DNA of 64,000 bases, taken from NCBI GenBank assembly GCA_017403145.1, contig JAFQOO010000004.1, positions 1 through 64,000 of the forward strand, given 5' to 3'. The stretch comes from Clostridia bacterium (GTDB lineage Bacteria > Bacillota > Clostridia > Christensenellales > DTU072). The notes beneath the pieces are model-generated. The model ran no database searches and was not told the origin of the DNA. It was given only the letters and a program-made list of their open reading frames with translations. Below, piece by piece: positions 10,910-17,161 of this stretch. The position numbers and the translations under genes were made by a program. Each line of letters begins with the position of its first letter. Positions within the stretch are counted from its first letter, which is position 1.

Positions 10910-11252
10910 GGGGGTGTACCGGATTCGACTTATGACGTTAAGGGACTGTAAGCATACCGAAGGCTCGGCTTCGTAAAAACGGAAACTTAAAATTAACTGA
11001 CGAATCAAATCTTCAGTACGCTGCCGCTTAGTTGCAGCCGTCGGACCTACTTCCTGCGGGTAGCAATCCGGCGTGGTTTAGCAGGGAACCGAGTTTAGTA
11101 ACGCCTTGGACTAAAAACGGAACTTAAAGGCTTGGTTGAAGTGGGGTTTGCCTATTGACCTAACGGATACGACAATTAACAACAGGCTAAGTATGTAGAA
11201 AGCGGTTCGGTAGCCCGTAAGAACAGGGGTTCGACTCCCCTCACCTCCACCA
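10910..11252 (+). ncRNA. ssrA: Transfer-messenger RNA (tmRNA)
   Basis: 343-nt one-piece tmRNA. The 5' end GGGGGTG pairs with CACCTCC just before the 3' ACCA, giving the tRNA-like acceptor stem. The 5' part continues with GGATTCGAC, and the T-arm is AGGGG-TTCGACT-CCCCT at the 3' end (11225-11241). The tag reading frame ends ...DESNLQYAAA at a TAG stop (11029-11031). Reading back in that frame the tag could extend to about 10972 (R-K-N-G-N-L-K-L-T-D-E-S-N-L-Q-Y-A-A-A), but I cannot fix the resume codon. CCA is encoded. With SmpB it rescues stalled ribosomes. Confidence 0.93.
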
Positions 11253-11308
11253 ATACCAAACAAATTCGAACCCTCAGGGGTTCGTTTTTTTTGTTTGTAT
11301 TGGTGGAG
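11245..11308 (+). terminator. ssrA terminator inside a larger palindrome that includes the tmRNA 3' end
   Basis: Core hairpin CGAACCC / GGGTTCG (11267-11284) followed by eight T. Around it, 11245-11256 (CTCCACCAATAC, including the tmRNA 3' end) is the exact reverse complement of 11297-11308. Confidence 0.8.
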
Positions 11309-11346
11309 ACGGGGAGAACGCACCCTCGCGCAAGGCGCGAGGGTGC
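11259..11346 (+). repeat. Two-hairpin module, copy 1
   Basis: Contains the terminator hairpin, then TTTTTTTTGTTTGTATTG, then a strong second hairpin CACCCTCGCGC-AAG-GCGCGAGGGTG (11321-11345). The same order of parts recurs at 11506-11592. Confidence 0.7.
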
Positions 11347-11505
11347 GCAAGTTGCGTTAGCAACCTGGCGAAAGAAAATGCTCTGCATTTTTGATGAGTT
11401 AATTAGATAGACAAATTATGTGTGATGAATTTTAGTGCAATGATAGTTTGTGCAAGACAGTCTTTCGCGCTACCCTCAAATAATACGATAATAAAGATGT
11501 TCAAA

Positions 11506-11592
11506 AACAAATTCGAACCCGCACGGGTTCGTTTTTTTTGTTTGTATTGATGGAGGTGTGGAGGGCTCACCCCTCACGCAAAGCGTGGGGGT
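11506..11592 (+). repeat. Two-hairpin module, copy 2
   Basis: CGAACCC / GGGTTCG hairpin (11514-11531) with eight T, the same TTTGTATTG linker, then hairpin ACCCCTCACGC / GCGTGGGGGT (11569-11592). Stem bases differ from copy 1 while pairing is kept. The 160 bp between the copies (11347-11505) hold no gene that I can see. Confidence 0.7.
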
Positions 11593-11697: not shown

Positions 11698-11726
11698 TTG
11701 CAATTACGCGCGCGTGATTGTATAAT
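11698..11726 (+). promoter_or_regulatory. Promoter of the cas operon with an ACGCGCGCGT operator in the spacer
   Basis: TTGCAA (11698-11703), 17-nt spacer, TATAAT (11721-11726). The spacer contains the palindrome ACGCGCGCGT (11706-11715). Transcription would run antisense through the tracrRNA gene and reach the cas9 ATG about 135 nt after the start site. The same palindrome sits in the PFOR promoter. Confidence 0.65.
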
Positions 11727-11758
11727 TGTAGTTAAGGAAAGGACCGTTTAAATCAAAT

Positions 11759-11833
11759 AAAAAAGCCCGTCTATACGGGCAGCCAACAAGTTGGCGATTA
11801 AGCTTACGCTTATTTGAACGAATGTTGTTCTAT
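11759..11833 (-). ncRNA. tracrRNA of the type II CRISPR system
   Basis: Read on the minus strand, the RNA starts near 11833 with an anti-repeat (TAGAACAACATTCGTTCAAA). This pairs with the first ~22 nt of the CRISPR repeat: GTTTGA, then a bulge, then AATGTTGTTCTA. Next come AATAAGC, a short nexus-like stem AAGC-GTAA-GCTT, a hairpin GCCAA-CTTG-TTGGC (11782-11795) and a terminator hairpin GCCCGT-ATAG-ACGGGC (11765-11780) with TTTTTT. Mature length about 75 nt. The AAAUAAG after the anti-repeat resembles the SpCas9 tracrRNA. Confidence 0.9.
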
Positions 11834-11839
11834 ATCTTG

Positions 11840-11868
11840 AATATATCATACGATGAGAGGTTTGTCAA
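11840..11868 (-). promoter_or_regulatory. tracrRNA promoter overlapping the cas9 start codon
   Basis: On the minus strand: consensus TTGACA (11868-11863), 17-nt spacer, TATATT (11845-11840). The -35 box shares base 11868 with the cas9 ATG, and the cas9 ribosome site lies in the spacer. Confidence 0.8.
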
Positions 11869-14800
11869 TGGAAAATCGAAAAATTTATTTAGGAATTGAT
11901 TTAGGTACCGACAATTTGGGGTATGCTGTTACTGATGAGAATTATAAAGTATTACGAAAGGGTGATAAAAATGGGCTAGGCGTAGTACAGTTTTCTAATG
12001 CGGAGACAGCGGCGAGTAGACGAATAAATAGGACTACCTCTCGTAGGATAGCAAGAAGAAGGTATAGGGTTTCTTTATTAAACGATATATTTGCTCCTGA
12101 AATTATGAAAGTGGACAAAAACTTTTTGCAACGTTTAAAGGAGAGCGACCTTAAACATGAGGATAGGAAAGTAGATTTCAAACATACGTTATTTAATGAT
12201 GCTGGATTTACAGATAGTGAGTTTTATAATAAATATCCTACTATATATCATTTGCGTAAAGCCCTTATGGAAAAAGCTTCTGATGACGTAAGATTATTGT
12301 ATCTAGCAGTTCATCATATTGTGAAATATAGAGGAAACTTTTTGCGTTCTGAAGATAGTATTGGCGGAGAGAGCGACAACTTTAGTTTGATAATAAATAT
12401 AATAGACGAACTTAATGCAAGGATAGAGAATCGTAACCAAGATTTGATTGCTGAAAATAGCGAGTATATAGCATATAACATTTCTAAATATACAGTCGAC
12501 GTAGATGAAGTAGTGGCTATTTTATCTGGTAAGAAACTGGATGAAAATGGAAAGCCAATTCGTGGCAAGGATAGAAAAGAGGCGTTAAACGTAGCCTTCA
12601 ATGCAACAAAGGGTGGTAATCAGATTGGATTGTTGGATGCCTCTATTAAAGGGAAAGGTAAGATAAGGACTATATTTGGTGAATACTATGATAAAGAAAG
12701 CAATCTAGAAATTGATTTTTCGCAGTTTGATGAAAAATCGGGAGAATATAGTATGGTCGTGAACGAGCAAGATTTTGCCATACTAGAAAAGATGAAGGAA
12801 CTATATGATTGGTGTGTGCTTACTTCACTGCTTGCTGGGTATAACCTTTTGTCGGATGCAATGATAGCGCTATATAATCGTCATAAGAGTGAGCTTGCCG
12901 AACTGAAATCACTTATAAAAACCTATGGTGATAAGGATATGTTCAAGCGTGTTTTCCATTTAAGCGCAGACAACAATTATTCTACTTACGTAGGCGGTGG
13001 TACGTACGTTAAAGAAAACAAAGAGATACAAAGTAAGGAGCAATATACTAACAAGTGTTCCGACGTTGATTTTTATAAATTTTTAAAGAAAGAATTGGCA
13101 AAAATAAAAAATCCAGTAGTCCAAAGCAAAATTAAAGAAATCGAAACAAAGATGGATATTGGCGGATATTTGCCTAAGCCGGTATCAAAAAACAATTCAA
13201 CGTTACCATATCAGCTTAATAAGAAGGAACTAGAAATTATACTTGATAATGCTATAGCTTCTGGTAAATATGATTTTCTAACCAAAGTATCTGATGGAAT
13301 GAGTAATCGTGATAAGATTATTAGTCTATTAACGTTTAGAGTTCCGTATTACGTAGGTCCTATAAAGCAATATACAAAAGAAGAAGATAGATATAAAAAT
13401 AAGCACGGATGGGCTGTTCATAATATGGGAACTTCGGGTAGGATAACGCCGTGGAACTTTGAGGATAGGATAAATCTTGTTGAGAGTGAAAAAGCTTTTA
13501 TTAAAAAGATGACTTCATCTTGTACATATCTTAAAGATTGTGATGCTCTTCCAAAAAATTCTTTGATATATGAAAGATACCTTGCATTGAATGAATTGAA
13601 TACTTTAAAAATCGATGGATGTCCAATGAGTGTCGAAGTCAAGAAGGGTATTTTTGATAACGTATATTTAAATAAAAAGGTTACAATCAAGAATATTAAA
13701 GAGTATCTCTTTAGTATTGGATATTCTCGAGAAGTACGTATAAGCGGATATGACAAAGAACTCAAAGGTGATATGAAAGTTTATCGTGCTTTCAAAGAGA
13801 TTTTTAAGGATAAAGTCGACCTTTATCCGAAACTTATGGAGGAGATAATCTTTATTCTTACCATTCATGAAGATGCAAAGTTAATAGAAAAAGCTCTTAG
13901 AAAGTATTCTAGTATATTGTCCAACGATGAAATAAAAAAGATTAAAGGATATAAATATAGTGGATGGGGAAGGCTTTCTGGAGAATTACTTAGAGGAAGT
14001 ATATATGAAAAGGGTATTCAGCTTACTGTTCGTGGCTGTGAACTTTATGATTTGATAGACCTATTATATGAAACAAACCTAAACTTTATGCAACTTATAA
14101 ATGCAAAAGAATATGGTTTTGAGAAAAAGGTTCTTGAATATTTGGAAGAAAACGAACTGATTGATAATACCAACGTAGTATATAAGGACGTTGAAGAACA
14201 ATATTGTTCGCCCACGGTAAAACGAAGCGTGTGGCAGACAATCAAAGTCGTTAAAGAACTGCAAAAGGAATTTGGAGCAATTCCACAAAAGATTTTCTTA
14301 GAGGTAACACGTACCAATAGTGATAAGGATAAAGGAAAGCGAACCAGAAGCAGAAAAGAGCAAATAGATGCTATTTATCGTGAAGCGGAAAGCAAGGTCA
14401 AAGAGTTTGCTAATATGAAAGAGGCTTTGCAAAAACGCAGAAACGAATTATCCGTTTATGACAAAGACAAGGATTCATCCGAACTCAAAAGCAAAAAATT
14501 GTTCCTATACTTTATGCAACTAGGACAAGACGTTTATACAGGACAAGAAATAGAGATTGATGAATTATACAACTATGATATAGACCACATTATTCCACAA
14601 TCTAAGGTAAAAGACGATAGCTTGGATAATAAAGTTTTGGTCCATAAAGTTGTAAATAATGCAATAAAGAAAGACCTCTATCCCCTTCCTAAAGAGTGCA
14701 GACAGCCTACGTTATGGAAGACGTTGCTTAAAATGGATTTGATGTCCAAAGAAAAATACGATAGACTTACACGAACAACGCCTATCAGCGAAGAGGAAGA

Positions 14801-16265
14801 AAAGAAGTTTATAAATCGTCAACTTGTCGAGACTGCTCAAACTGCATTGATAGTAAGAGACCTTTTGGCAAAATGGGCGAGAAGTCAAGGCGTTGATATA
14901 GAAATAAATTTAAATAGAGGCGGAAACGTCGCGGAATTCCGCAAGATGTTCCACCTTACAAAGTCAAGGGATATTAACGATTTCCACCACGCATACGATG
15001 CATATATGAACGTGGTTGTTGGTAACGTGCTTTTCGAAAACTTTAACCATAGTCGAGATTATAATCGTCGCATTGATGAAAAGGAAGAATACCAAGATGT
15101 AGTTGCTCAGGATGGCAAAAAGATTGATAAAAAGTCCAATAACTTTAAACGTTGCTTTTATCGTAACGTTTATTCGGATAGAGAACAAAGAGTTATTTGG
15201 TACCCGGAAAATAGCAAAAAAGCCACGCCGACTATTGATATAGTAAAAAAATCACTTCGCCTTATTCCAAACGTAACTAGCAAAGTAGAAACAGGTAAAG
15301 GACAGTTCTATAAAGAAACAATTTTTAAAGCAGGCGACGGACTAATACCTTTAAAAGACAAAGGCCCCAAGAGTGGCGTAGAAGGGCTAAAGAAATATGG
15401 TGGATATAAATCATCGGGTACGGCGTATTTTGTAGTTATAGAAGCCGATGGTAATAAAGGTGAAACCAAAAGATATCTTGAAGGGGTTTCTATCTATGAA
15501 GATATGCTTATGAGAAAGGGATTAAAAACAAAAGAAGAGTTTTTAAAAGGTTTCTATAGATATGAGAATGCTCGTTTCGCTAATATCCCCGAGCTTAAAG
15601 AAGGCAAAATTAAGGTTGGGTCATTGCTTCGTTTTGATGATGAATACGAGTTGTATTTAACAGGACAAAATGAAAGAGTAGTTCTATTCCACAACGCAAA
15701 TCAATTGCATACGTCGGATTATATAAATAGTTATATCAAAGAAATGAGGACTATTGTTGATAAGGTTGTTAAAGAGTTGGTTTCATTAAAGAAAGAAAAT
15801 GAAGAAGAACAAGAAGAAATTTGTGTAGAGCTTGTAAAACGAAATCTTGAGCGCATCGAAATAGCCAAGAATAATAACAACGTATATGACCATATTATCG
15901 TTTTATCGAAAGAAAATAATTTGGCAATATACGACTACGTTATGGAAAAACTTTCTAAGAAACCATATTTAAATATACCGGGATATAAAAACGTGTTGAC
16001 TTTCCTAAAGTCAGCAAGGGAATTGTTCCAAACCTATGCGCTGTTTAAACAAATAAAACTGTTATTAAGTATGTTCGGGATATTTGGTAGAAATAAAGCT
16101 GGTGCAGATTTAAGCATTTTGACAGAAGATGATTTGGGAATAAAAGGAAGCTCTGCTGCAGGAAAGATACAACCGTCAAAAGAACTAAAATCCAAAGTTT
16201 GTTTGGTAACAAAATCTATAACGGGCTTAAAAGAAAAAGTGATTATTATCAATCAAACTAAATAA
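11868..16265 (+). CDS. cas9: CRISPR-associated endonuclease Cas9 (type II-A)
   Basis: RNA-guided DNA endonuclease, 1465 residues, longer than SpCas9 (1368). I chose the ATG at 11868 because GAGAGG lies 6 bp upstream; an earlier in-frame ATG at 11853 has no ribosome site. Landmarks (numbering from 11868): RuvC-I YLGIDLGTDN with Asp11; arginine-rich bridge helix about 52-68; RuvC-II IFLEVTRTN with Glu812; HNH YDIDHIIPQS with His907; RuvC-III FHHAYDAY with His1041 and Asp1044. The C-terminal PAM-interacting domain has LKKYGGYKSSGTAYFVV and ends near KSITGLKEK, as in SpCas9. The SpCas9 PAM arginines are not conserved: the aligned segment reads AGKIQPS. cas1 starts two bases after the stop. Confidence 0.97.
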   Translation: MENRKIYLGIDLGTDNLGYAVTDENYKVLRKGDKNGLGVVQFSNAETAASRRINRTTSRRIARRRYRVSLLNDIFAPEIMKVDKNFLQRLKESDLKHEDRKVDFKHTLFNDAGFTDSEFYNKYPTIYHLRKALMEKASDDVRLLYLAVHHIVKYRGNFLRSEDSIGGESDNFSLIINIIDELNARIENRNQDLIAENSEYIAYNISKYTVDVDEVVAILSGKKLDENGKPIRGKDRKEALNVAFNATKGGNQIGLLDASIKGKGKIRTIFGEYYDKESNLEIDFSQFDEKSGEYSMVVNEQDFAILEKMKELYDWCVLTSLLAGYNLLSDAMIALYNRHKSELAELKSLIKTYGDKDMFKRVFHLSADNNYSTYVGGGTYVKENKEIQSKEQYTNKCSDVDFYKFLKKELAKIKNPVVQSKIKEIETKMDIGGYLPKPVSKNNSTLPYQLNKKELEIILDNAIASGKYDFLTKVSDGMSNRDKIISLLTFRVPYYVGPIKQYTKEEDRYKNKHGWAVHNMGTSGRITPWNFEDRINLVESEKAFIKKMTSSCTYLKDCDALPKNSLIYERYLALNELNTLKIDGCPMSVEVKKGIFDNVYLNKKVTIKNIKEYLFSIGYSREVRISGYDKELKGDMKVYRAFKEIFKDKVDLYPKLMEEIIFILTIHEDAKLIEKALRKYSSILSNDEIKKIKGYKYSGWGRLSGELLRGSIYEKGIQLTVRGCELYDLIDLLYETNLNFMQLINAKEYGFEKKVLEYLEENELIDNTNVVYKDVEEQYCSPTVKRSVWQTIKVVKELQKEFGAIPQKIFLEVTRTNSDKDKGKRTRSRKEQIDAIYREAESKVKEFANMKEALQKRRNELSVYDKDKDSSELKSKKLFLYFMQLGQDVYTGQEIEIDELYNYDIDHIIPQSKVKDDSLDNKVLVHKVVNNAIKKDLYPLPKECRQPTLWKTLLKMDLMSKEKYDRLTRTTPISEEEEKKFINRQLVETAQTALIVRDLLAKWARSQGVDIEINLNRGGNVAEFRKMFHLTKSRDINDFHHAYDAYMNVVVGNVLFENFNHSRDYNRRIDEKEEYQDVVAQDGKKIDKKSNNFKRCFYRNVYSDREQRVIWYPENSKKATPTIDIVKKSLRLIPNVTSKVETGKGQFYKETIFKAGDGLIPLKDKGPKSGVEGLKKYGGYKSSGTAYFVVIEADGNKGETKRYLEGVSIYEDMLMRKGLKTKEEFLKGFYRYENARFANIPELKEGKIKVGSLLRFDDEYELYLTGQNERVVLFHNANQLHTSDYINSYIKEMRTIVDKVVKELVSLKKENEEEQEEICVELVKRNLERIEIAKNNNNVYDHIIVLSKENNLAIYDYVMEKLSKKPYLNIPGYKNVLTFLKSARELFQTYALFKQIKLLLSMFGIFGRNKAGADLSILTEDDLGIKGSSAAGKIQPSKELKSKVCLVTKSITGLKEKVIIINQTK

Positions 16266-16267
16266 TT

Positions 16268-17161
16268 ATGGGTTTTAGAACGGTGGTTGTTAAAAATAGA
16301 GCTAAGCTTGACTACAAACTAAATTATTTGGTTTGCAGAGCAGATAAGGAAACTCGCGTTTTTATTCCCGAAATATCCGTTCTAATAGTAGAGTCAACAG
16401 GAGTGTCGATAACATCGGCACTCCTATCGGAGTTAATTAAAAATAAGGTAAAAGTAATATTTTGCGACGAAAAACATATTCCACATTCACAGCTGATAGG
16501 CTTATACGATAACTTCCATTCATCCAAAAACGTTTTAAAACAAATCGAGTGGGAAAACAAGGCTAAGCAAAGCGTATGGCAAAATATAGTGTACCATAAA
16601 ATACTAAATCAAAGTAAGGTACTATTCAAGTATGGATTTATAGAAGAAGTTCAAATGCTTTTAGAGTACCTTTCCAATATCACCCTTAATGATAGTACCA
16701 ATCGTGAGGGACATGCCGCAAAGGTTTATTTCAATGCATTGTTTAATAACGCAGGTAGGCGAATACCCTCGTTTTATAATTCAGCATTGAATTATGGATA
16801 TGCTATATTGCTTTCGGCATTTTGTAGAGAAATTACTGCTAGCGGATATATTACTCAACTTGGTATTTGGCATAGTAATGAATTTAACCATTATAACCTT
16901 GCGAGTGATTTGATGGAATCGTTTCGTGTAATCGTGGATGAAATGGTACTTGACCTTGATGATAAATGCAACTTTAAGATTCCAATGGCAAATATTTTGA
17001 ATGCTAAAGTTCGTATTTGCGGTAAAACTATGTTCCTTGATAATGCTATAGAGGTTTATACCAAAGGAATATTTAATGCGCTGGAAACTGGGGATATATC
17101 TAGTATCAAAAATTTTGAAAGCTATGAGTTACCGATATATGAGAACGATTGTGATGTTTGA
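16268..17161 (+). CDS. cas1: CRISPR-associated endonuclease Cas1 (type II)
   Basis: Metal-dependent integrase that, with Cas2, inserts new spacers at the leader end of the array. 297 residues, usual for type II. Likely metal ligands are Glu in NREGHAAKVYFNALF (about 149), His in GIWHSNEFN (about 205) and Glu in LASDLMESFR (about 220). It follows cas9 by two bases and overlaps cas2 by 38 bp. Confidence 0.95.
   Translation: MGFRTVVVKNRAKLDYKLNYLVCRADKETRVFIPEISVLIVESTGVSITSALLSELIKNKVKVIFCDEKHIPHSQLIGLYDNFHSSKNVLKQIEWENKAKQSVWQNIVYHKILNQSKVLFKYGFIEEVQMLLEYLSNITLNDSTNREGHAAKVYFNALFNNAGRRIPSFYNSALNYGYAILLSAFCREITASGYITQLGIWHSNEFNHYNLASDLMESFRVIVDEMVLDLDDKCNFKIPMANILNAKVRICGKTMFLDNAIEVYTKGIFNALETGDISSIKNFESYELPIYENDCDV

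What the first reader, a model, noticed from the sequence alone, without database searches (positions are those of the whole stretch)
11759..11868. tracrRNA divergent from cas9, with its -35 box on the cas9 start codon and a cas transcript antisense to it
The tracrRNA promoter (TTGACA 11868-11863, TATATT 11845-11840, minus strand) shares a base with the cas9 ATG and covers its ribosome site. The cas promoter at 11698 would transcribe straight through tracrRNA in antisense. The two units should therefore interfere by polymerase collision, RNA pairing, or blocking of the ribosome site. This arrangement could make tracrRNA level and Cas9 level mutually exclusive or self-limiting, in a different way from the published long-tracrRNA repression of Pcas9 in Streptococcus.
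Basis: partly seen in the sequence, partly recalled or inferred. Interest (0 to 1): 0.6.

Follow-up and report, generated by a model that had tools for sequence, protein, structure and literature searches.

The report
Face-to-face tracrRNA and cas9 promoters
In this Clostridia-type genome the small guide-RNA (tracrRNA) gene of a CRISPR-Cas9 system starts right on top of the cas9 start codon and runs backwards through the cas9 leader; the layout is real, but it is the usual one in related bacteria, and any mutual interference it causes is still unproven.

Summary
A type II-A locus carries a minus-strand tracrRNA (about 11833-11759). Its -35 box TTGACA (11868-11863) shares one base with the cas9 ATG, and its promoter covers the DNA of the ribosome site. 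A plus-strand promoter (TTGCAA 11698-11703, TATAAT 11721-11726) lies beyond the tracrRNA 3' end, so the predicted cas leader (about 11733-11867) is antisense to the whole tracrRNA.

It is not a quirk of this genome. In related loci a minus-strand promoter has its -35 within 40 nt of the cas9 ATG in 63 of 78 cases, against 3 of 323 other genes. Strong plus-strand promoters cluster upstream of the tracrRNA terminator (29/64), and none lies between it and cas9 (0/64). A cas promoter at the tracrRNA 3' end is already published and functional in group B Streptococcus (P2cas).

Two parts of the interpretation fail or weaken. The tracrRNA starts about 21 nt short of the Shine-Dalgarno, so it cannot mask the ribosome site. 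Mutual exclusion is unlikely, because P2cas-only strains are immune and raising P2cas raises immunity. Weak coupling (occlusion, RNase III cleavage of the duplex) stays plausible but untested. No tracr-L-like fold exists here.

The parts
11759..11833 (-). tracrRNA (predicted, 75 nt): anti-repeat about 11833-11804, two hairpins, terminator stem 11780-11765, T-run 11764-11759
   Evidence: anti-repeat pairs with array repeat, -21.7 kcal/mol; terminator scan
11840..11868 (-). tracrRNA promoter: -35 TTGACA 11868-11863, 17 nt, -10 TATATT 11845-11840
   Evidence: same position in 63 of 78 related cas9 loci against 3 of 323 other ORFs
11698..11726 (+). cas operon promoter: TTGCAA, 17-nt CG-rich spacer, TATAAT; predicted start about 11733
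   Evidence: same promoter subtype upstream of several other genes of the genus; promoters enriched at this place in relatives
11733..11867 (+). predicted cas9 mRNA leader, antisense to the entire tracrRNA; Shine-Dalgarno GAGAGG 11855-11860
   Evidence: sequence; inferred from promoter and ATG, no transcript data
11868..16265 (+). cas9 (1465 aa from ATG 11868)
   Evidence: TIGR01865, 760 bits
16268..17161 (+). cas1
   Evidence: TIGR03639
17076..17444 (+). cas2 (longest ORF; the Cas2 match begins at residue 22, so the true start is probably near 17139)
   Evidence: TIGR01573
17441..18115 (+). csn2
   Evidence: TIGR01866
18208..20025 (+). CRISPR array, 28 repeats of 36 nt, 27 spacers of 30 nt; last repeat degenerate at its 3' end

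Best explanation
This is the ordinary compact control region of a Bacillota type II-A CRISPR-Cas9 locus, made of two overlapping face-to-face transcription units. A strong sigma-A-type promoter packed against the cas9 start region transcribes a minimal tracrRNA backwards; it terminates about 25 bp before the cas start site. The cas operon starts beyond that terminator and is transcribed through the tracrRNA gene and its promoter, as from P2cas of group B Streptococcus. Both units are expressed together. The likely by-product is mild coupling: cas polymerases occasionally clear the tracrRNA promoter, and tracrRNA can pair with the cas leader to give an RNase III substrate. The ribosome site itself is not masked. 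Shown here: the anatomy, its conservation, and the lack of a promoter between tracrRNA and cas9. Inferred: start sites, joint expression, and the size and sign of any coupling.
For: Anatomy. Conservation: 83 of 90 loci with arrays have a minus-strand anti-repeat upstream of cas9 (a few of them with short, probably II-C, Cas9). In 67 a -35/-10 pair lies just before it, with the -35 5' base at 0 to -8 (34 loci) or -15 to -35 (29 loci), never beyond the A of the ATG. Control: 63/78 cas9 against 3/323 other ORFs, Fisher p = 6e-55. Cas promoter position: sites scoring 10.5 or more in 29/64 upstream of the tracrRNA terminator, 5/64 in the next 160 nt, 0/64 between terminator and Shine-Dalgarno. A separate phylum-wide draw shows the same layout in the long Cas9 loci L178-L185. 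Published precedent for a cas promoter at the tracrRNA 3' end: PMC12216829.
Against: No transcript data for this organism. Promoter calls rest on consensus matches, and start sites are predicted. The interval between tracrRNA and cas9 is shorter and more constrained than the control stretches, so 0/64 is partly expected. In several relatives no strong cas promoter was found (e.g. L050, L091, L134, and none at score 10 or more in L178-L185). tracrRNA level was not found measured in the passages of the P2cas paper that were read.
Confidence: 0.72

Rival explanations
1. One reading: the two units strongly interfere (polymerase collision, antisense pairing), so that tracrRNA and Cas9 levels are mutually exclusive or self-limiting.
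For: Predicted start sites are about 100 bp apart and converge; the leader is a perfect complement of the tracrRNA (duplex -138.6 kcal/mol), and the anti-repeat pairs better with the leader (-47.5) than with the repeat (-21.7). Long conservation of the layout.
Against: In group B Streptococcus with only the distal cas promoter, immunity works and rises when that promoter is derepressed, so tracrRNA is not shut off there. tracrRNA does not reach the Shine-Dalgarno. Collisions over a 75-nt unit should be brief (inference).
Confidence: 0.15
2. Pure compaction: the overlap has no regulatory effect. Selection or inertia keeps the tracrRNA promoter as near to cas9 as the coding start allows.
For: The -35 lies just on one side or the other of the Shine-Dalgarno and never beyond the A of ATG, as packing would give; position differs between clades.
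Against: Does not by itself explain why almost no relative here has an added promoter between tracrRNA and cas9, as streptococci have.
Confidence: 0.4
3. The leader acts as a built-in decoy pre-crRNA: free tracrRNA (or Cas9-tracrRNA) pairs with its repeat-like stretch and RNase III cuts it, linking free tracrRNA to cas mRNA stability.
For: The leader holds the exact complement of the anti-repeat; RNase III cleavage of tracrRNA:repeat duplexes is established for type II (own knowledge).
Against: No processing data. A cut in the leader would leave the Shine-Dalgarno and coding part intact.
Confidence: 0.2
4. The cas9 promoter is elsewhere: TTGCAA/TATAAT at 11698 is inactive and cas9 starts within the tracrRNA region or by read-through from upstream.
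For: Consensus scans alone find 6 sites in 961 bp against 3.1 expected.
Against: The same promoter subtype precedes known genes in the genus; no candidate lies within the tracrRNA region; two terminator-like hairpins stand upstream at 11267 and 11514.
Confidence: 0.08

Closest known systems
P2cas of Streptococcus agalactiae (PMC12216829)
   Same: A distal cas promoter at the tracrRNA 3' end; cas transcription runs through the tracrRNA in antisense; sole cas promoter in strains that lack P1cas.
   Different: There P1cas usually also exists, tracr-L is present and CovR controls P2cas; here only the distal promoter is seen and the tracrRNA -35 touches the cas9 ATG.
tracr-L repression of Pcas in Streptococcus pyogenes (discussed in PMC11417352)
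   Same: tracrRNA gene upstream of cas9 on the opposite strand; type II-A.
   Different: Needs a long tracrRNA with its own guide and a repeat-like arm targeting a cas promoter; no such arm here (-3.1 kcal/mol).
Convergent overlapping promoter pairs such as phage 186 pR/pL (own knowledge)
   Same: Face-to-face promoters about 60-100 bp apart, where transcriptional interference is documented.
   Different: Here one product is a 75-nt terminated RNA and no interference has been measured.

Membership tests
Type II-A CRISPR-Cas | cas9, cas1, cas2 and csn2 in one operon | tested here: met
   NCBIfam matches over cut-off, TIGR01865, TIGR03639, TIGR01573, TIGR01866
Type II-A CRISPR-Cas | array plus tracrRNA whose anti-repeat pairs with the repeat | tested here: met
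   28 repeats; duplex -21.7 kcal/mol
P2cas-type distal cas promoter | cas promoter beyond the tracrRNA 3' end, reading through it | tested here: met
   by sequence only: TTGCAA-17-TATAAT at 11698-11726; enrichment in relatives
P2cas-type distal cas promoter | measured promoter activity and control by CovR | not testable with these tools
   needs expression data
tracr-L autorepression | repeat-like arm upstream of the anti-repeat, with guide matching a cas promoter | tested here: not met
   best pairing of anti-repeat with the 125 nt upstream is -3.1 kcal/mol
tracr-L autorepression | cas promoter between tracrRNA and cas9 | tested here: not met
   best plus-strand site between terminator and Shine-Dalgarno scores 7.0, below the shuffled mean 7.9

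The most novel reading that the evidence does not exclude
The cas leader antisense to tracrRNA is a conserved control element of type II-A loci outside streptococci: free tracrRNA pairs with the repeat-like stretch of the cas9 leader, and RNase III cleavage matches cas expression to tracrRNA and crRNA supply.
Probability: 0.15. Interest if true: 0.65.

Novelty: new member of a known kind. Interest (0 to 1): 0.34.

Why it matters
If the coupling is real, most type II-A loci of Clostridia would carry a control circuit different from tracr-L, bearing on how bacteria balance Cas9 against its RNAs. If not, the layout is still a practical marker: a TTGAC-type minus-strand promoter at the cas9 start locates the tracrRNA in unannotated loci.

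Tried and rejected
A close-relative scan with Cas9 alone found nothing in genome or viral contigs; an alignment-based scan gave 80 loci. The palindromic CG-rich spacer of the cas promoter was considered as a regulator site; the same subtype precedes unrelated genes (GH38-type mannosidase, NuoE-like, pheS-like, oxidoreductase; names judged from sequence by eye), so it looks like a lineage promoter form. No convincing spacer match to the tracrRNA/cas9 control region was found within the window. A G-U test for the strand of the 5' hairpin in relatives was inconclusive. An added minus-strand site inside cas9 (11968-11941, 10/12) was considered as a long tracrRNA start and rejected for lack of a repeat-like arm. 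Two tracrRNA classification papers were not held, so novelty of the conserved overlap could not be checked against them.

Full report
What is there. The window holds a complete type II-A locus: tracrRNA on the minus strand, then cas9, cas1, cas2, csn2 and an array of 28 repeats on the plus strand. The tracrRNA anti-repeat pairs with the repeat at -21.7 kcal/mol, and a terminator hairpin with six T ends it at about 11759.

Is it chance? The tracrRNA promoter matches 11 of 12 positions with the best spacing. Eight such sites exist in 64 kb, and shuffled windows hold 0-3. More tellingly, the position repeats across relatives whose Cas9 shares only about 28-37% identity. I fetched 60 loci of the same order, 80 named loci, mostly Clostridia and other Bacillota, and ten from a phylum-wide draw.

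Conservation of the overlap. Of 126 distinct loci, 90 had a usable repeat and 83 of these a strong minus-strand anti-repeat upstream of cas9; in 67 a promoter was found just before it. Its -35 starts 0-8 nt before the A of the ATG in 34 loci (five of them, this one included, share that A) and 15-35 nt before in 29. It never enters the coding sequence further. As a control, 63 of 78 cas9 genes but 3 of 323 other genes with a Shine-Dalgarno in the same loci have a minus-strand promoter of score 10.5 or more in that place. The short Cas9 genes (L085-L087, L059) lack it.

Where the cas promoter is. In 64 loci with a recognisable terminator, plus-strand promoters of score 10.5 or more lie in the 160 nt upstream of the terminator in 29, in the next 160 nt in 5, and between terminator and Shine-Dalgarno in none (Wilcoxon against shuffles p = 3e-10, 0.017 and 0.06). 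So cas transcription in this group most likely starts beyond the tracrRNA, and its leader is antisense to it. In the window the promoter is of a subtype (TTGCA, CG-rich spacer, TATAAT) that precedes several other genes of the genus.

What it probably does. The two RNAs are perfect complements over the whole tracrRNA; the anti-repeat pairs with the leader at -47.5 against -21.7 for the repeat. RNase III cleavage and some promoter occlusion are therefore expected from general knowledge, but nothing here measures them. tracrRNA starts about 21 nt before the Shine-Dalgarno, so direct ribosome blocking by it is not expected; a promoter overlapping the ribosome site on DNA does not block it on RNA.

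Comparison. A cas promoter at the tracrRNA 3' end is known: P2cas of group B Streptococcus is the only cas promoter in the CC-17 lineage and is enough for immunity, and loss of its repressor raises cas transcription four-fold and raises immunity (PMC12216829). This argues against mutual exclusion. The tracr-L circuit (PMC11417352) needs a repeat-like arm, and in streptococci the regulated cas promoter stands between tracrRNA and cas9 (own knowledge, in line with PMC12216829); neither is present here.

Limits. Start sites are predicted. The conserved overlap itself may have been noted in tracrRNA surveys that I could not open.

Noticed in passing
related loci, e.g. L030, L033, L103, L122, L153 (first about 25 nt of the predicted tracrRNA): In about half of the relatives (30 of 62 by 2 kcal/mol or more) the first ten or so nucleotides of the tracrRNA pair with the middle of its own anti-repeat, more strongly than with anti-repeats of other loci (-4.85 against -2.78 kcal/mol, p = 2e-7). 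It looks like a tracr-L fold without a guide; the window tracrRNA lacks it.
   Followed up: partly
11698-11726 and loci L168-L177: A promoter subtype of the genus with a CG-rich spacer (TTGCA...CGCGCG...TATAAT), found upstream of several unrelated genes.
   Followed up: partly
10910-11252, 11258-11325, 11505-11572: A tmRNA gene just upstream of the locus, followed by two 87% identical 68-nt copies of its terminator region 247 bp apart, suggesting a local duplication or an insertion scar.
   Followed up: no
loci L108, L109, L120, L127, L156, L162, L167: In these type II-A relatives the best anti-repeat match upstream of cas9 is on the plus strand, so the tracrRNA may be placed or oriented differently.
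   Followed up: no
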